Source: Lachnospiraceae bacterium (GTDB lineage: Bacteria; Bacillota; Clostridia; Lachnospirales; Lachnospiraceae). Taken from it: 64,000 nt of DNA. This document shows positions 5,223 through 62,852 of this stretch, in pieces. Location: the NCBI GenBank assembly GCA_022647575.1, contig JALCKY010000006.1, positions 124,001 through 188,000 of the forward strand, read 5' to 3'. Both the position numbers and the translations under genes were made by a program. Each line of letters begins with the position of its first letter. Position 1 is the first letter of the stretch. Under the pieces are notes generated by a model. The model was not told the origin of the DNA. It saw only the letters and a program-made list of their open reading frames with translations, and did no database searches.

Positions 5223-6473
5223 ATGGCTGAAGATATCCGTCTGGCATTTCAGGGAATCTGGTCGCACAAGATGCGGTCTTTCCTGACGATGCTCGGAATC
5301 ATCATCGGAATCGCCTCGATCATTTCCATTGTTTCGACCATCAAGGGAACGCAGGAACAGATCAAGCAGAACCTGATCGGTTCCGGGAACAATACCGTGA
5401 CGGTCAGCCTGAAAGAGGGAGATTCCGATTACGAAATCGGATACGAAGGCAAGCCGAAGGGATTTTCCCCGGTTACGGCAGACCAGGTTTCACAGATTCA
5501 GGAACTGGATTCCGTCAGTTCCGTGTCTCTTTACTGCGCCCGGAACTATGCCGACGGGGTGTATTATAATTCGACGGCGTTGGAAGGCGGAAAGGTTCTG
5601 GGAATCGACGCTTCCTATCTGAAGACGTGCGGCTACGCGATCCGCGAAGGAAGGGCCTTTGTCACAAGCGACTATACGGCTTACCGGAAAGTCGTCCTGC
5701 TGGATGCTTCTGCCGCGAACAGTCTCTTTGCTGGAGAAGATCCGGTCGGAAAGACCATTGAGATTCAGGGACAGCCGTTCTCAGTCGTCGGCGTCATCGA
5801 GAAAACGAATCTCGTCGAGCCGGTCATCAACAGCATGTCAGATTACCAGACTTATCATCAGGCGGAGAGCGGGATGGTCTGCATGCCGATTGCCTCCTGG
5901 CCGATCACCTATTCCTACGATGAACCGGAAAATGCAGTCGTCAGGGCGGTCAGCACGGAAATGATGAGCAAGGCCGGCAAGCAGACGGCGGATATCCTGA
6001 ACGGAAATACCGCAGCCGATGCAACGGTCAGATACCAGGCGGAAGATGTCCTTGAGACAGCGCGCAACCTGCAGTCCCTTTCCGAAAGCACGAACAGCCA
6101 GCTTTTGTGGATTGCCAGCATTTCCCTGCTGGTCGGGGGCATCGGCGTCATGAACATCATGCTGGTGTCGGTTACGGAACGCACGCGTGAAATCGGCCTG
6201 AAGAAAGCGCTCGGAGCAAGAAAGCGGCGGATCATGGTTCAGTTCCTGACGGAGTCCGCCGTGCTGACAAGCATCGGGGGCGTTCTGGGCGTTATCGTCG
6301 GGATCATTCTCTCGCAGGTCATTTCCAGGGTATCGTCCGTGCCTGTCGCGATCAGCGTCCCGGCAATTGTTTTCTCGGTTGCCTTCTCGATGGCAATCGG
6401 GATCATCTTCGGACTGCTTCCTTCGATGAAGGCGGCAAATCTCAATCCGATCGATGCACTGAGGTATGAATAA
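5223..6473 (+). CDS. MacB-like ABC transporter permease (FtsX family)
   Basis: A 416-residue permease in the MacB topology. One membrane helix near the N-terminus (about 18-40) is followed by a large extracytoplasmic MacB_PCD domain (about 45-270) and three C-terminal helices (about 295-315, 340-365, 380-400). The conserved ERTREIGLKKALGA segment lies between helices two and three. AGGAGG precedes the ATG. With the two adaptors and the ATPase it should form a complete export pump. Family members export peptides, macrolides or toxins, and the substrate here cannot be told from sequence. The stop overlaps the next start (TAATG). Confidence 0.93.
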   Translation: MAEDIRLAFQGIWSHKMRSFLTMLGIIIGIASIISIVSTIKGTQEQIKQNLIGSGNNTVTVSLKEGDSDYEIGYEGKPKGFSPVTADQVSQIQELDSVSSVSLYCARNYADGVYYNSTALEGGKVLGIDASYLKTCGYAIREGRAFVTSDYTAYRKVVLLDASAANSLFAGEDPVGKTIEIQGQPFSVVGVIEKTNLVEPVINSMSDYQTYHQAESGMVCMPIASWPITYSYDEPENAVVRAVSTEMMSKAGKQTADILNGNTAADATVRYQAEDVLETARNLQSLSESTNSQLLWIASISLLVGGIGVMNIMLVSVTERTREIGLKKALGARKRRIMVQFLTESAVLTSIGGVLGVIVGIILSQVISRVSSVPVAISVPAIVFSVAFSMAIGIIFGLLPSMKAANLNPIDALRYE

Positions 6474-7696
6474 TGGCAGATACAATCAAAGACGGAACCA
6501 GAAAACTTTACTACGACGACGCCTATGCGACGGATTTTGAAGCCAGGGTCATTTCCTGCAGGGAGAAAACGGACGGGAAGCAGCCGGCCGGGAAGCAGCA
6601 GGAATCTTCCGGTCCGGTCTATGAAATCATTCTGGACCAGACGATGTTCTTTCCGGAGGAGGGCGGCCAGTCGCCGGACCTGGGAACGCTGAACGGAACG
6701 GCGGTGACCGACGTGCAGATCCGGGACGGGGTTATTTCCCACATGACCGGGAAGGCTTTTGAGGAAGGCAGCACCGTCAGGGGCGCCGTGGACCGGAGGC
6801 ATCGCTTTTCCAATATGCAGCAGCATTCGGGCGAGCATTTATTCTCCGGGCTCGTCCATCAGAAATTCGGCTACGACAACGTCGGCTTCCATCTGAGCGA
6901 CCGGGAAGTGACGCTGGACTTCAACGGTCCGATTACGGATGAGCAGATTCTTGAGATTGAGCATCAGGCAAATGAGGCTATTTTCGCGAATCTTGAAACG
7001 CAGATTCTTTACCCGACGAAGGAAGAGGAGAAGCAGATCGAGTACCGCAGCAAGATCGAGATCGAAGGGCAGACGCGCCTGGTCAGGTTCCCGGGCATCG
7101 ATGTCTGCGCCTGCTGTGCACCCCATGTTCGCCGTACCGGCGAAATCGGCATCCTGAAGGTCGTGAGCCTGCAGAACTACAAGGGCGGGGTCCGCGTGAG
7201 CATCCTGTGCGGGAAGAGAGCCCTGCAGCTTTTCGACAGGGAGCACGGCAGCCTGTCCGCGATTTCGAATTATCTGACGACTTCTGCAGACCTGGCGTAC
7301 GATTCGGTCGTGAAGCTGAAGGAGGAGAACGGAAGGCAGAAGAGCGCGCTAGCAAGGGTAGCATCTTCGGAAATGGAACGGACAGTCGCGGAGGTTTCTC
7401 CGGATCTGAAGAATGTCTGCCTCTTTACGGACGGAGCAGACGGCAAGGCAGTCAGGGACGCGGTGAATTCCCTTGTCGAAAAGCATGAAGGCATCTGTGC
7501 CTTCTTCAATGGAAATGATTCCGACGGTTACAGTTTCATCATCGGCTCCCGGACGTGCGATTCACGTGAAGCGGGCCGGATCCTGACAGAGAAATTCGGT
7601 GCAAGAGGCGGAGGAAAACCTGCGATGATCCAGGGCTCCGTGAAGGCTTCAGCCGAAGCAATCCGGACGGCGCTGGTAGAAGTATCTGCCGGCTGA
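6473..7696 (+). CDS. alanyl-tRNA editing protein (AlaX-like, DHHA1 domain)
   Basis: A 407-residue free-standing relative of the AlaRS editing domain, which removes serine or glycine from mischarged tRNA-Ala. The zinc site is visible: HxxxH at His118/His122 in QHSGEHLF, and CxxxH in the CACCAPHV segment (about 212-219). A DHHA1 domain with the GARGGGKPAMIQG signature occupies roughly 300-405. An N-terminal Lys/Gln-rich insert (about 32-45) is not part of the core. Translation is coupled to the ABC permease, an odd companion that probably reflects shared transcription only. The stop codon lies at the edge of a long palindrome. Confidence 0.9.
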   Translation: MADTIKDGTRKLYYDDAYATDFEARVISCREKTDGKQPAGKQQESSGPVYEIILDQTMFFPEEGGQSPDLGTLNGTAVTDVQIRDGVISHMTGKAFEEGSTVRGAVDRRHRFSNMQQHSGEHLFSGLVHQKFGYDNVGFHLSDREVTLDFNGPITDEQILEIEHQANEAIFANLETQILYPTKEEEKQIEYRSKIEIEGQTRLVRFPGIDVCACCAPHVRRTGEIGILKVVSLQNYKGGVRVSILCGKRALQLFDREHGSLSAISNYLTTSADLAYDSVVKLKEENGRQKSALARVASSEMERTVAEVSPDLKNVCLFTDGADGKAVRDAVNSLVEKHEGICAFFNGNDSDGYSFIIGSRTCDSREAGRILTEKFGARGGGKPAMIQGSVKASAEAIRTALVEVSAG

Positions 7697-8040
7697 TCCG
7701 ACTTTTTTGCCGGCGGCAGGATTCAATGGAAAATCTGATATACAGATCCATTCCGTCCGGCCCGTGCCCTCTGCGTGAAAACGATTCCCGCGTGCACGAT
7801 TTTCTGACAATCTTTTCATAAAGTATAACAAGAGCCTCTCCTGCGGAACTCGTCTGAATGCTTTCGAAGACAGAAGTCTTCAAGCTCACACAGTCCTCGG
7901 AGAGGCTCATACTTTATTCAAAGATTGCCGAAAATCAGGCACGCGTCCATCATGTTTTCACGCAGAGGGTACGGACCGGGCGAAACGGATTTATACAGCA
8001 GGCTGTCAAAGAATCCTTCCGCCGGCACAAAGACAGATCA
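7694..8040. repeat. long imperfect palindrome (about 345 bp)
   Basis: Bases 7694-7866 and the reverse complement of 7876-8040 align over their whole length at roughly three quarters identity. Blocks such as GCCGGCGG, CCTCTGCGTGAAAAC and GAGCCTCTCC are conserved. The centre is GAAGAC-AGAA-GTCTTC at about 7866-7881. It fills most of the gene-free interval 7697-8077 between the convergent alaX-like and galE genes. No coding signal is convincing on either strand. A transcript from either side could fold into one very long hairpin. It could be a MITE-like element or an inverted duplication of a 3' region. Confidence 0.85.
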
Positions 8041-8070
8041 GACGGCCGGTACAAAGACAGATCAGACGGC
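8027..8070. repeat. two-copy tandem repeat, 24-bp period
   Basis: ACAAAGACAGATCAGACGGC occurs twice, 24 bases apart, at the outer edge of the right arm of the long palindrome and just before the galE stop codon. With only two copies and no spacers it is a local duplication. Confidence 0.85.
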
Positions 8071-8077
8071 TGCGAGC

Positions 8078-9094
8078 TTATTCCCTGTAGCCGTCCGGAT
8101 TGTTCGACTGCCATCTCCAGGCGTCCTCGCACATTTTGGCGATGCCCCGCTCCGCCTTCCATCCCAGAATCTCATTTGCCTTCTTCGGGTCGGAATAGCA
8201 GGTCGCGATGTCACCCGGACGGCGGGCTTCGATGGTATAAGGAATTTCCTTCCCGCAGGCCTTTTCGAAAGCCTTGATCACATCGAGGACCGAGTAGCCC
8301 ACACCGGTGCCCAGGTTGAAAATATTCACACCGTTCAGTTTCTCCATGCCTTCAATCGCTTTTACATGGCCGACAGCAAGATCGACGACGTGGATGTAGT
8401 CACGGACGCCCGTGCCGTCGGGAGTATCGTAATCATTTCCGAAGACATGCACGAACGGAAGCTTGCCGGTTGCAACCTGTGCGACATAAGGCAGCAGGTT
8501 GTTGGGGATTCCCTTCGGATCCTCTCCGATCAGGCCGCTTTCGTGCGCGCCGATCGGATTGAAATAGCGGAGCAGCATGATGTTCCATTCCGGATCGCTT
8601 TTCCAGATATCGGTCAGGATGCGCTCCTGCATGGACTTCGTTGCACCGTACGGATTCGTCGTTTCGCCCATCGGGCACTCTTCGGTAATCGGCACGAAAG
8701 CCGGATCGCCGTAGACCGTCGCGGAGGAAGAGAAGACGAACTTTTTGACGCCGTGCGCACGCATAACATCGCAGAGCGTGAGAGTTGTCTCCAGGTTGTT
8801 GTGATAGTATTCGATCGGCTTGTGCGTCGATTCGCCGACGGCCTTGTAGCCTGCGAAATGAATCACGGCATCGATCTTTTCTTTATCAAACAGCTCCGTC
8901 ATCGCTGCATGATCCAGAACATCAGCCTGATAGAAAACAGGACGCTTTCCGGCAATCTGTTCGATGCGGTCCACAACCATTGCCTTGGCATTGTAGAGGT
9001 TATCCGCGATGACAACGTCGTAACCTGCCTTCAGAAGCTCCACGCAGGTGTGGCTGCCGATAAAGCCGCAGCCTCCGGTAACAAGAATCTTCAT
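8078..9094 (-). CDS. galE: UDP-glucose 4-epimerase
   Basis: A 338-residue, full-length short-chain dehydrogenase-type epimerase of the Leloir pathway, interconverting UDP-galactose and UDP-glucose. The NAD-binding GGCGFIGSH motif is at residues 7-15. The catalytic pair is Tyr149/Lys153 (YGATK), with the SSSATVYG serine motif near 122-129. It lies 32 bases downstream of galK on the same strand, with an AGGAGGGA-type ribosome site. No galT is in the window. Confidence 0.97.
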   Translation of the reverse strand: MKILVTGGCGFIGSHTCVELLKAGYDVVIADNLYNAKAMVVDRIEQIAGKRPVFYQADVLDHAAMTELFDKEKIDAVIHFAGYKAVGESTHKPIEYYHNNLETTLTLCDVMRAHGVKKFVFSSSATVYGDPAFVPITEECPMGETTNPYGATKSMQERILTDIWKSDPEWNIMLLRYFNPIGAHESGLIGEDPKGIPNNLLPYVAQVATGKLPFVHVFGNDYDTPDGTGVRDYIHVVDLAVGHVKAIEGMEKLNGVNIFNLGTGVGYSVLDVIKAFEKACGKEIPYTIEARRPGDIATCYSDPKKANEILGWKAERGIAKMCEDAWRWQSNNPDGYRE

Positions 9095-16748: not shown

Positions 16749-18673
16749 GTGCGCCTGGCGGCGCACGTCTCTAACCGGTGAAAGTCCGGAATCCGCCCGG
16801 TAGGGGGAAGGATACAGCCGAAGGCAAGGGTGTCCATCGCGAGGTGGAATCTGAAGGAAGCCGGATGTCGGAAACATACTAACCGACGGGCAAATCTCTG
16901 GTCTGACGAACAGGAATCACATCAGGCCATGCATGAGGGTAAGGCTGCCAGACAAGTCGAAGCCCGGTAACTACACGGAATCATGCATGGTAAATGGGGC
17001 AGATGGATGGAGAGAAAGAGACGTGTGGTACCCGGGGAGGTCTGCATGCGGGCCCTGAAAGGGGTAAACACCGCACAAGGAAACGAGGCGGTGCTGAACG
17101 TGCAGAAGTCAGCAGAGGCCATAGTAGCCGGAAGGCAAAGGGCCGAATCAACAAGGAGTCCTGAGAACGACTGGGAAAGGAGAAGGACGGAATGGATGCA
17201 GAAAACAGAGACAGCTGCTCGCAAAAGGATAGTGCGGAACACGAAGGATATGTGAGAGCGCATCGCTCCTTCAACCGGATATGGAAGGGAAGGGACAGTG
17301 CACAGCCGGAACTCTTGGAAAGGATACTGGATAAGGACAACCTGAACAGGGCCTACAAGAGAGTGAAGGCAAACAAGGGAGCGCCGGGGATGGATGGAAT
17401 GACGATTGAAGCGGCACTCCCGTATCTGCGGGAGAACCAGAACGAACTGGTCGGGAAGATATGCAGGGGGGAAATATACCCCGAACCCGGTCAGGCGGGT
17501 GGAGATCCCGAAACCGGACGGCGGAATGCGGAAGCTTGGCATTCCCACCGTCATCGACCGCATCATCCAGCAGGCAATGGCACAGCAGCTGATGCCGATC
17601 TATGAGCCGGTGTTTGCGGATGGAAGCTATGGGTACAGGCCGGGGACGCAGTGCAAAGGACGCCATACGGAAAGTGAAGGAGTATGCGGAACAGGGTTAT
17701 ACATACGCAGTGGTGCTTGACCTGTCCAAATATTTCGACACAATCAACCACACAATCCTGCTGAACATCCTGAGGAGAAACATCAGGGATGAACGGGTAA
17801 TCCAGATGATAAAGAGATACCTGAAAAGCGGAGTGATGGAAGACGGCGTGGTGACGAAAACAGAGGAAGGGTCACCGCAGGGAGGGAACCTATCGCCCCT
17901 GCTGGCGAATATCTACCTCAACGAATTCGACCAGGAGTTTAAGAAACGGGGGGTGCCGTGCATCCGTTATGCAGACGATATCGTCCTGCTGGCGAAAAGC
18001 AGGAGGGCATCCGAAAGACTTCTGGAGTCCAGCACAAAATATCTTGAGGAGACGCTGAAACTGACGGTGAATCGGGAGAAGAGCAGAACGGTAAGCGTGT
18101 TTGCAATCCGAAATTTTAAGTTCCTTGGCTTTGCGCTGGGAAAGAACGGAAAAGGAATCTATGTACGCGTTCATGCAAAGTCATGGAAGAAGCTGAAAGC
18201 AAATCTGAAAAACCTTAGTTCCCGAAGGAACGTTCAGAGCATACGCCCGGCATTGGATAAACTGAAGGTGTATGTCAGAGGATGGCTGAACTACTACGGA
18301 ATTGCAGATATGAAGAACCCCCATAGAGGTACATCAACGGCTGGCTGTATCATCGAATACGCATGTGCATCTGGAAACAATGGAAGAAACCGGGAAACGA
18401 AGATGAGAAATCTTCATTAAGCTCGGGGTGCCGGATGCACTATGCCGCCTTTCAGGCAGGCTATACTCACGCAGGAGGTTACTGGTTCATTTCAAACGAA
18501 TACGGTCGCTATCAATATGGGCCTAACTAAAGAAAGACTGATACGCTCGGGCTTCTTATGACCTATCCCGTCGCGTATCAGTCAGTGCATGAAACTTGTT
18601 GAAAGCGCCGTGTACCGAACGGTACGCACGGTGCTGTGAGAGGACGGCGGCTAATCACCGCCTCCTACTCGAT
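16749..18673 (+). mobile_element. group II intron, degenerate
   Basis: The 5' end GTGCG at 16749 begins a hairpin (GTGCGCC/GGCGCAC) and a structured, gene-free 5' region to about 17190, as expected for domain I-IV RNA. Domain V is recognisable at 18604-18635, with an AGC catalytic triad, GAAC tetraloop and bulged stem. A domain VI hairpin (GGCGG/CCGCC) ends at about CTACTCGAT, 18673. The following exon CCATCAGC (18675-18682) equals the bases after the terminator in tRNA copy 1 (14660-14667), which confirms both boundaries. Insertion just behind a terminator hairpin is the habit of class C introns. The encoded maturase is broken, so it is probably not self-mobile. Confidence 0.88.
17192..18602 (+). 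pseudogene. group II intron reverse transcriptase/maturase, frameshifted
   Basis: Three overlapping frames reassemble into an LtrA-type protein. The N-terminus contains LDKDNLNRAYKRVKANKGAP, the middle contains IPKPDGGMRKLGIPTVIDR, and the catalytic part has LDLSKYFDTINH, SPQGGNLSPLLANI and the YADD active site (near 17970). The maturase X domain follows (HRIRMCIWKQWKK in an alternate frame near 18350). Extra bases are evident in CCCC at 17479-17482 and GGGG at 17642-17645, near 18315, and at least twice more before the stop near 18602. Either the gene has decayed or it shares the window-wide indel errors. Confidence 0.88.
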
Positions 18674-61279: not shown

Positions 61280-61363
61280 GATCCGGACGGCAGATCCGTT
61301 TCCGGGAAGAAAAAACCGGACGGAATATCCGCTCATGAAAATATCAATATCCGGACAAAACAT

Positions 61364-61399
61364 CCGCAGTGTGGGAAAACCTCACACTGCGGTTTTTTT
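61364..61399 (+). terminator. intrinsic terminator after tetR
   Basis: CCGCAGTGTG pairs with CACACTGCGG around a GGAAAACCT loop, followed by seven T residues. The phrase GTGAG-AGAACCTCAC recurs about 20 bases later at 61406-61420 as a second, weaker dyad. Confidence 0.88.
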
Positions 61400-61450
61400 G
61401 CCCATTGTGAGAAGAACCTCACCACTCTATGCTTAAAATGAGGTGAAACT

Positions 61451-62852
61451 ATGAGAATAATTATGATTACACCTGCAAGTGCACTGAGAAGATTTCCGCC
61501 GTACCGGCTGGCGGGAAAAGCCTACGGGCAGTCCAATTCCATTACGGGCCCGCTGATTCTCGGAGGAATTCTGAAAAAAGCCGGCCATGAGGTAGAAGCC
61601 TACGAAGAACTGAACGGGAGCGTGCCGTACAAGCATCTGAAAGACGCTGACGTCGTCTGCCTGTATACCCTGACCTGTTCGGCGCCGCGGGCCTATGAAC
61701 TGGCAGAGTGGTTCCACGCGAATACACATGCCAGAGTGCTGATCGGCGGCATTCATGCCTCCGCTCTTCCGGAAGAGGCTGCACGGTATGCCGACCAGGT
61801 CATCGTGGGAGAAGGGGAGTCCGTTATCCTGGATGTCGTGGAAGGACGAATCACGGACAAAATCGTCAATGCTCCCTGCCCGGAAGATCTGGACCGGATT
61901 CCGTTTCCCGACTATTCCATCCTGAAGACGCCGTGCAAAAGTGCAAATATTATGTCAACCAGAGGATGCCCGTTCTGCTGTTCTTTCTGTACGACATCCA
62001 GGATGTTCCATCCCTACCGTCAGCGTTCCGTCGACAGCGTGATTGAAGAGCTCCGGTATTATAAGAAGCTCGGATTCCATTATATGAATTTTGAGGACGA
62101 CAACTTTACGGCTGACCGTGAGAGGGCAAAGGAAATCTGCAGGAGGATGATCCGGGAAGGCCTGACCTTCAAGGGAAACTTTCTTTTTCGGCCGCACGGA
62201 TCTTGCGAAAGACGAAGAGATGCTCGACCTTTTGAGAGAGGCTCATTTAACGCGTGTACTGGTCGGAATCGAATCGCTGAATCAGAAATCGCTGGATGCC
62301 GTCAACAAGCATCAGAGCGTGGATGACATCAAGAAATGCACGGCAGTTCTGGCAAAGCACGGAATCCGTCTGATTGCCAGCATCGTGCTCGGCATCGACA
62401 CGGATACGAAAGAGGACATCATGCATTCCGTCGATTTCGTCAAGAGCTGCAATGCCCCTACCAGCTGCAGCCTGCCATCCTGACTCCGTATCCGGGGAAC
62501 GGATACTTACCGGCAGATGGTCGCCGAGAACAGGATGATCACGACCGACTGGACGATGTTCGATATGATGGATGTCACCTTCCTTCCGAAGAGCATGAGT
62601 CCGTGGGAACTGCAGAACCTGTTTTACAGCATGGCCATCCATTTCTATGACTTCAAATCAATCCCGGCCATCTGGAAGGCATTCGGACCGGAATACGGGA
62701 TGCGCAGATTTGCCCTGGCCATTTTTTTCAGGCTGGGTGTCGCTGCGGCAAGAGGAGCTTCGCATAACTGGAAAACCACGCAGATGTACAAGCTTCGGCA
62801 TTACAGCCGTCCGGCCGGGAACCATGTGAGCCGCAAGGAAGAAATTGCCTGA
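61451..62852 (+). CDS. B12-binding radical SAM protein, frame broken near 62197, 62455 and 62508
   Basis: About 466 residues after correction. The N-terminal part (about 1-130) is a cobalamin-binding-like Rossmann domain (YTLTCSAPRAYELAEWF and VLIGGIHASALPEEA). The radical SAM core has TRGCPFCCSFC as the CxxxCxxC cluster motif. The second frame continues with EEMLDLLREAHLTRVLVGIES and ASIVLGIDTDTKEDI, the third with the C-terminal helical region. Shifts fall at GCC(C)GC and in GGGGAAC. The class modifies unreactive carbons and the substrate is unknown. Confidence 0.85.

What the first reader, a model, noticed from the sequence alone, without database searches (positions are those of the whole stretch)
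7694..8040. 345-bp imperfect palindrome between alaX-like gene and galE
The two arms, each about 165-170 bases, align throughout with mismatches and small gaps, and the symmetry centre is a perfect 6-bp dyad. This is far longer than any terminator in the window and fills the intergenic space exactly, starting at the upstream stop codon. It could be a miniature inverted-repeat element, a long structured 3' RNA shared by two convergent messages, or an inverted duplication preserved by selection. Conserved blocks with compensatory drift would favour an RNA.
Basis: partly seen in the sequence, partly recalled or inferred. Interest (0 to 1): 0.72.

Follow-up and report, generated by a model that had tools for sequence, protein, structure and literature searches.

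The report
Dispersed palindromic element, probably mobile DNA
The long palindrome after the alaX-like gene is one copy of a family of hairpin-forming DNA elements scattered through chromosomes of very different bacteria, sometimes in facing pairs that enclose unrelated genes, which suggests a mobile system whose enzyme is still unknown.

Summary
The palindrome is real: window 7688-8046, one hairpin of about 145 pairs, overlapping the last codons of the alaX-like gene. It is not a one-off: its central 76-179 bp recur at six other places in the genome, and a covariance model of the apex finds ten strong copies. The apical motif (GAGGAYTGTNYGAG, variable hairpin, CGAGTTCCGCAG) occurs in at least 116 stretches of public genomes labelled with about eleven phyla, yet it is patchy (7 of 150 family genomes, 7 of 398 phylum genomes, own included) and matches no Rfam model. 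Neighbouring copies under 400 bp apart nearly always face the same way (21 of 21 in fetched loci; 18 of 19 in an overlapping listing of whole genomes). Such doublets recur as ~550-650-bp repeats, and 1-2-kb pairs enclose unrelated genes. One copy is missing from the matching site in a sister species. Stems covary, but unbiased counts show little wobble excess, and copies ignore gene direction, so I favour a DNA-level REPIN/MITE-like mobile element over an RNA. Y1 transposases do not track it (4 of 7 carriers, 84 of 143 non-carriers). The window copy is solo, at a convergent junction, and may also serve as a transcript end. The mobilising enzyme is unknown. New variant of a known kind.

The parts
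7688..8046 (-). whole imperfect palindrome (hairpin, about 145 pairs); the motif-bearing strand is minus
7829..7910 (-). apical core matched by covariance model R1 (55.7 bits); the only match in the 64-kb window at E up to 0.01
7885..7898 (-). 5' half of the conserved apical motif, GAGGACTGTGTGAG on the minus strand
7841..7851 (-). 3' half of the conserved apical motif, GAGTTCCGCAG on the minus strand
7783..7968 (.). the part shared with the other copies of this genome (outermost limits of the blastn matches)
7688..7782 (.). left outer arm: pairs with the right outer arm; no exact word over 11 nt shared with nine other own-genome copies
7969..8046 (.). right outer arm: pairs with the left outer arm; no exact word over 11 nt shared with nine other own-genome copies
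7816..7817 (-). one side of a tandem G-A internal loop (GA facing GA) flanking the shared core
   Evidence: read; structural interpretation
7918..7919 (-). other side of the tandem G-A internal loop
   Evidence: read; structural interpretation
8021..8068 (.). 24-bp tandem duplication (2 copies, 96%) at the right foot of the hairpin
6473..7696 (+). flanking alaX-like gene (alanyl-tRNA editing / AlaRS C-terminal domains); its last codons lie in the left arm
8078..9094 (-). flanking galE gene, convergent

Best explanation
The palindrome is a solo copy of a family of non-autonomous, hairpin-ended mobile DNA elements that works like REPINs/MITEs. Shown: multiple dispersed copies; a conserved apex; variable but internally complementary arms; inverted doublets of nearly fixed orientation that recur as ~550-650-bp units or enclose unrelated genes; one site where the element is present in one species and missing in a sister species. 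Inferred: the folded strand (single-stranded DNA during replication, or an extruded cruciform) is recognised at the apical internal loop by an enzyme supplied in trans. Further inferred: pairing of the arms is kept, and the palindrome extended, mainly by hairpin-templated correction of one arm from the other (template switching), which would explain compensatory block changes with few wobble intermediates and the near-perfect outer arms that differ between copies. In the window the element sits between convergent genes, where it may incidentally help end or protect both messages.
For: Six further places in the same genome by DNA (72-85% identity, 76-179 nt) and 10 strong plus 2 weak copies by model. 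Covariation in 74 copies: 242 cells changed on both sides versus 105.9 +/- 8.2 in shuffles; score 0.424 versus 0.136, and 0.083-0.130 when slid. Patchiness, own genome counted: 2 of 42 genomes of the genus, the second by one weak match at a contig end; 7 of 150 family genomes, one per genus; 7 of 398 phylum genomes. Doublets: 21 of 21 neighbouring pairs under 400 bp in 116 loci are minus-left/plus-right; 18 of 19 in the capped listing of 16 whole genomes, an overlapping set (counted by hand). The same doublet recurs in one genome: L031/L086, 604 aligned bp, 93.5%. Pairs with similar ends and different enclosed genes: L244, L245 and the related L247/L248. Occupied versus empty: L215 of G132 has 378 bp where congener G627 has 45 bp, flanks 93.9% and 81.9% identical. 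No dependence on gene direction: 32 same, 33 opposite. Pairs chosen by Watson-Crick frequency only, six groups: G-T 72, A-C 57; core stems: G-T 32, A-C 50, of which 19 and 20 in the well-aligned part. Outer arms that differ between copies: L044 (72 identical bp), L215 (35 of 37 pairs).
Against: No transposase or recombinase was identified. One close pair has the opposite order (G041:C100, 187 bp, plus then minus), and wider pairs are mixed: 5 of 9 at 0.4-3 kb are minus/plus. No target-site duplication was found: of nine doublets, six share direct repeats of only 4-5 bp and three none, one of which could not be tested because its locus ends there; some edges are only where similarity stops. The empty site is one case in another genus; four other sites tested there, and the window site, gave no usable empty site. 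The window copy has no partner, so its own mobility is untested. Some counts favour a folded strand that tolerates wobble: G-T 131 versus A-C 91 and G-A 169 versus C-T 55 in arms of 129 copies (where the outward alignment stopped early at uneven loops in about half of the copies); G-T 10 versus A-C 0 in one of the six groups; G-T 58 versus A-C 2 on an RNAalifold structure of 17 of 20 G132 copies (that method favours wobble). Two of five covariation measures (pairs changed on both sides, pair types) do not exceed shuffles. The minus strand of the window folds better than the plus strand. Template switching is inferred, not observed.
Confidence: 0.62

Rival explanations
1. A multi-copy structured RNA: the hairpin is transcribed (own promoter or read-through), a protein binds the apical internal loop, and the stem is kept by selection on the RNA.
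For: Strong covariation. The internal loop looks like a protein-binding RNA motif (opinion). G-A and some G-T asymmetry favours the motif strand; one of six groups shows G-T 10, A-C 0; the alifold structure of G132 copies shows G-T 58, A-C 2. Fold z-scores are -15.8 and -17.7.
Against: G-T hardly exceeds A-C in total when pairs are chosen without wobble preference. Orientation ignores neighbouring genes. No promoter-like site in 7550-8250. No Rfam match at E up to 5 for 7400-8400 of the window or up to 1 for a doublet. Inverted doublets enclosing genes are hard to explain for an RNA gene.
Confidence: 0.2
2. A bidirectional terminator or 3'-end stabiliser shared by the two convergent genes.
For: It lies between convergent genes. 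Copies are enriched there (40 of 118 placed copies convergent, 13 divergent; baseline 75 and 85 of 350 gaps). At the site of another own copy (L005), congeners G022 and G019 carry stem-loops with T runs that look like ordinary bidirectional terminators (by eye).
Against: No strong stem followed by a T run was found at the palindrome; the scan gave 2 weak sites against 0.7 +/- 0.9 in shuffles. 65 of 118 placed copies lie between tandem genes and 13 between divergent ones. A conserved apical motif across phyla is not needed for termination. It may still be a side effect.
Confidence: 0.13
3. REP/REPIN of a RAYT or TIRYT (Y1 transposase) system.
For: Inverted doublets and singlets, hairpins, mostly intergenic. 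The own genome has one Y1 gene, and 8 of 12 motif genomes have at least one.
Against: No convincing motif at any of 14 Y1 loci, flanks up to 1.5 kb and shorter at contig ends (one loose match with 4 mismatches and a few half matches judged spurious). The own Y1 gene has its own GGGGACGG repeats. Y1 is present in 4 of 7 motif-positive and 84 of 143 motif-negative family genomes. No GTAG tag is evident.
Confidence: 0.03
4. One-off inverted duplication, or an assembly chimera.
For: Outer arms are unique to the window copy.
Against: The core recurs in the same genome at six other places and in other organisms, the own-genome copies each with their own paired arms.
Confidence: 0.02

Closest known systems
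REPINs (REP doublets; PMC3116915, passages read)
   Same: hairpin units, inverted doublets as the replicating unit, singlets as likely remnants, dispersed between genes
   Different: own-genome units here are 106-565 nt rather than 20-40 bp; conserved apex instead of a GTAG-tagged foot; doublets of about 550-650 bp, and wider pairs that enclose genes; no RAYT partner found
GTAG/CGTC-tagged REPs and TIRtrons (PMC3733652, passages read)
   Same: palindromic repeats in several phyla; CGTC repeats also lack a dedicated transposase; dimers common; REPs lie mainly downstream of genes
   Different: no GTAG or CGTC tag seen; much longer; the GGGGWSAS TIRs described there resemble the separate repeats at the own-genome Y1 gene, not this element
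ERIC and other bacterial MITEs (ERIC anatomy recalled; ERIC listed as a MITE in PMC3733652)
   Same: imperfect palindromes of about 100-300 bp, intergenic; mobiliser of ERIC unknown (recalled)
   Different: motif differs; carrier phyla far wider; outer arms of separate copies unrelated though paired; inverted doublets, some with enclosed genes
Template-switch maintained hairpins (PMC8794818, outline with abstract and opening of the introduction read)
   Same: mechanism that creates perfect stems and multibase compensatory changes at the DNA level
   Different: described there for RNA genes; nothing on a dispersed element family in the part I saw

Membership tests
REPIN/REP (RAYT-mobilised) | GTAG or CGTC tetranucleotide at the foot of a 20-40 bp palindrome | tested here: not met
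   consensus of 74 copies shows an apical motif in long hairpins; no such tag seen by eye
REPIN/REP (RAYT-mobilised) | units form inverted doublets | tested here: met
   21 of 21 pairs under 400 bp in 116 loci, 18 of 19 in the listing; not met for the window copy itself
REPIN/REP (RAYT-mobilised) | associated Y1 transposase (RAYT) flanked by the same repeat | tested here: not met
   none of 14 Y1 loci convincingly; no co-occurrence in 150 genomes
MITE (broad sense) | multiple dispersed non-coding copies with inverted ends | tested here: met
   the window copy is a single palindrome
MITE (broad sense) | occupied and empty alleles of a site | tested here: met
   one of five sites tested in G132: L215 versus G627; not shown for the window copy
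MITE (broad sense) | target-site duplication | tested here: not met
   direct repeats of only 4-5 bp at 6 of 9 doublets and none at 3, one of them untestable; edges defined by loss of similarity, so weak
MITE (broad sense) | ends match those of an autonomous transposon | tested here: inconclusive
   no Pfam transposase among 15 enclosed proteins scanned; seven had no family, and one has a GIY-YIG domain at the cut-off
Structured RNA family (Rfam) | match to a curated covariance model | tested here: not met
   (17 of 116 loci)
Structured RNA family (Rfam) | expressed transcript | not testable with these tools
   no RNA-seq available
Intrinsic terminator | G+C-rich stem followed at once by a T run | tested here: inconclusive
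   2 weak sites, 0.7 expected

The most novel reading that the evidence does not exclude
A trans-phylum gene-cassette system: facing pairs of conserved hairpins, read as folded single strands by an unknown host or mobile recombinase, move themselves and whatever small genes lie between them through chromosomes, while the hairpins lengthen by templated copying of their own arms. The window palindrome would be a solo end of such a system.
Probability: 0.27. Interest if true: 0.87.

Novelty: new variant of a known kind. Interest (0 to 1): 0.62.

Why it matters
A 26-position bipartite motif at the tip of a hairpin whose arms are otherwise free to change recurs in records labelled from Patescibacteria to Betaproteobacteria to Lachnospiraceae (22 of its positions were fixed in the scan that found them, so its true variability is underestimated). 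It calls for one recogniser, shared by horizontal transfer or very old. Finding it would reveal a new mobiliser, possibly one that acts on folded DNA. The family also offers a natural test of template switching, and a warning that covariation alone need not prove a functional RNA. The gene-enclosing pairs suggest a route by which small orphan genes spread without a transposase beside them.

Tried and rejected
RAYT/REP: rejected on tag, adjacency and co-occurrence. Rfam families: none. A partner gene near the element: 650 ORFs within 4 kb of the L011-L126 copies gave no recurrent mobile-type family among the 14 largest blastp clusters shown; these were translations of the repeat itself, ABC transporters and other ordinary families. 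Plasmid, phage and viral carriage: no match to the window core in 72,556 plasmid or 50,697 phage records, none for two further queries in plasmids, none for the exact motif in IMG/VR. A betaproteobacterial query matched only through its second hairpin in 2 plasmid records. Insertion into a long pre-existing palindrome: the empty site of L215 lacks the 37-bp outer arms, so they came with the element or grew later; it does hold a short palindrome CTGCCTTGGCAG that resembles the outermost stem, so insertion into a short palindrome remains possible. Empty site in the window's own genus: flanks of four copies were searched in 42 genomes (three with both flanks, L148 with the left one only). L005 was aligned with G022 and G019 and L003 with G002, but intergenic DNA is too divergent to place ends. 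Congeners with both L005 flanks about 2 kb apart were not examined, and the alaX flank had no match outside the own genome. Literature: string searches for GAGTTCCGCAG (35 papers, 20 listed), GAGGACTGTCTGAG (0 papers) and CGAGGACTGT (33 papers, 15 listed), plus five word searches, gave no description of this family in the titles and abstract starts shown. One listed bacterial sRNA paper, PMC10204968, was checked in its passage: a sigma-54-like motif without the other half. Most subscription papers are not held. PMC2817692 and PMC4853749 were read in passages only.

Full report
The observation. Window 7694-8040 matches its own reverse complement along all 347 bases (74%, E 4e-44). Both strands fold as one hairpin, the minus strand better (-205.8 against -180.8 kcal/mol; z -17.7 and -15.8; none of 100 shuffles as good in either case). 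The best hairpin spans 7688-8046, so it includes the last codons of the alaX-like ORF and stops about 30 bp short of the galE stop. A 24-bp tandem duplication sits at its right foot.

More copies, different arms. In the same genome (3.03 Mb, 11 contigs) blastn finds six other places, 76-179 nt long at 72-85% identity, all within positions 90-275 of the query. Each of these places also folds as a hairpin, 106 to 565 nt. The outer arms of the window copy share no exact word longer than 11 nt with nine other own-genome copies. A covariance model finds ten strong copies and two weak ones. Three of the ten have a short apical hairpin and, by eye, share a second conserved internal loop while their outermost stems differ.

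A motif across phyla. The seven own-genome copies aligned keep GAGGAYTGTNYGAG at one side of the apex and GAGTTCCGCAG at the other; they were found by similarity, not by pattern. Record titles name Beta- and Gammaproteobacteria, Coriobacteriia and another actinomycete, Lachnospiraceae and other Bacillota, Bacteroidales, several Patescibacteria, Omnitrophota, Elusimicrobia, Nitrospirae, Desulfobulbaceae, Myxococcales and Gemmatimonadetes; many are metagenome bins, so single labels may be wrong. The letters fixed in the pattern are invariant by construction. In 74 of 108 non-redundant copies (list, alignment), 242 cells change on both sides of a pair against 105.9 +/- 8.2 in shuffles, and the covariation score is 0.424 against 0.136 in shuffles and 0.083-0.130 when slid; two other measures, pairs changed on both sides and number of pair types, do not exceed the shuffles. 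No Rfam model matches in the parts searched.

Distribution. The element is patchy. Own genome counted, it is in 2 of 42 genomes of the genus, the second by one weak match at a contig end, 7 of 150 genera sampled in the family with 1 to 20 copies, and 7 of 398 genomes in the phylum. There are 4 to 28 copies in each of 16 further carriers, chosen because they had the motif. Searches above 40 genomes used stricter filters that lose weak matches. It was not found on plasmids, phages or in IMG/VR with the queries used.

Doublets and enclosed genes. Model searches of the 116 loci gave 148 matches. Neighbouring matches under 400 bp apart are minus-left/plus-right in 21 of 21 cases; at 0.4-3 kb in 5 of 9. 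In the listed rows of 16 whole genomes, an overlapping set and a capped list, I count 18 of 19 under 400 bp in that order; the exception is G041:C100, plus then minus at 187 bp. In one genome two such doublets align over 604 bp at 93.5% (L031/L086); five other doublet pairs align at 75-90%, four of them within one genome and one (L037/L052) between two bins. Wider pairs enclose genes: an unknown 237-aa protein (L016), a beta-propeller protein (L098), unknown proteins of 142 and 246 aa (L101, L091), and in further genomes DnaJ, GFA, GIY-YIG (just at the cut-off) and DUF3592 proteins or proteins without a family. Four of the six later regions (L243-L246) were fetched because they showed this arrangement; L247 and L248 were fetched for one copy only and turned out to have the partner. 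L244 and L245 share 136 bp at the left and 313 bp at the right with each other and 141-193 bp per side with L247 and L248, which are related to each other over longer stretches. No Pfam transposase is among the 15 enclosed proteins scanned, but seven had no family. L090 encloses what look like ordinary genes and may be two independent copies. In Firmicute genomes most copies seen were single, with one doublet in G122.

Mobility. For five copies of G132 I searched its genus (10 genomes, G132 included) with joined flanks. One copy, L215, had both flanks together in G627 (93.9% and 81.9%), with 45 bp in place of 378 bp. The missing stretch includes the whole palindrome with its copy-specific 37-bp outer arms, and some flanking bases that do not pair. 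The G627 site holds a palindrome CTGCCTTGGCAG whose halves resemble the outermost stem; the shared 10-mer is expected by chance in about 1 of 40 such comparisons (my arithmetic). At nine doublets no convincing target duplication is seen; one could not be tested.

RNA or DNA. Counts differ with method and are all given. In arms of 129 copies aligned outward from the core: G-T 131, A-C 91, G-A 169, C-T 55 (about half of the copies scored no better than random anchors there because uneven loops stop the extension, so long-armed copies weigh most). In the two stems of the core alignment: G-T 32, A-C 50, or 19 and 20 without the outer, poorly aligned part of the second stem. In six groups with pairs chosen by Watson-Crick frequency only: G-T 72, A-C 57, with one group at 10 and 0 (17 of 20 G132 copies used, three with inserts dropped). 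On an alifold structure, which favours wobble: G-T 58, A-C 2. The excess of G-A over C-T suggests that the motif strand is the one that matters when folded; the weak wobble excess in the unbiased counts speaks against long selection on an RNA stem. Copies ignore the direction of tandem neighbours (32 same, 33 opposite) and are enriched at convergent junctions (40 of 118 placed copies; baseline 75 of 350 gaps; of 154 distinct copies 8 fell in long ORFs and 28 lacked a flanking ORF on one side; short ORFs across a copy were dropped). Outer parts that differ between copies yet pair almost perfectly (L044 72 identical bp, L215 35 of 37), outside less perfect inner parts, suggest that arms are corrected or extended by copying, as template switching does (PMC8794818, outline with abstract and opening read).

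Partner. Y1 transposases are not the answer: one exists in the own genome with different repeats, none of 14 Y1 loci carries a convincing motif nearby, and Y1 is as frequent in genomes without the motif (84 of 143) as with it (4 of 7). No recurrent mobile gene was seen within 4 kb of the copies in the largest clusters.

Verdict. The finding is real and belongs to a broad family, not found in Rfam or in my literature searches, best read as non-autonomous mobile DNA with structured ends, nearest in behaviour to REPINs and MITEs but failing the REP membership tests. The window copy itself is solo, its own mobility is untested, and whether it also ends or stabilises the two convergent messages is open.

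Noticed in passing
window 16833-18673 +: Group II intron RNA domains (RF02001, RF01998, RF00029) mark a group II intron in the window.
   Followed up: no
L002 (G000:C7 around 61343-61487): Another own-genome copy folds as a 565-nt hairpin with 217 pairs, even longer than the window copy.
   Followed up: partly
L127 (G000:C2:309570-309902): The only Y1 transposase gene found in the own genome is bordered by GGAACCACGGGGACGGGGGTGGTGGTTC-type repeats, resembling the TIRtrons with GGGGWSAS motifs of PMC3733652.
   Followed up: partly
L242 3142-3200 (-) and 3473-3531 (+): In genome G122 a doublet lies between genes that look like dnaN/dnaA and rnpA/yidC/jag (named by eye), the usual place of the replication origin.
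   Followed up: no
L219, L227, L231 (G132:C13): Three copies carry what looks like another palindromic element inserted in one arm, near-identical in all three.
   Followed up: no
L024, L049, L074 and betaproteobacterial loci such as L031, L079: Uhrbacteria and Betaproteobacteria copies share a second hairpin (GTTACTTTCTTT...AAAGAAAGTAAC) outside the core; a similar stretch occurs at six places on the Ilyobacter megaplasmid NC_014633, where no core match was reported.
   Followed up: partly
L217 right flank (G132:C21 near 131467-131600): A decayed copy with a mutated apex lies close to an intact one, so model counts are lower bounds.
   Followed up: no
G041:C100:65827-66089: A close pair in the opposite order (plus then minus, 187 bp apart), the one exception among the doublets counted.
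   Followed up: no
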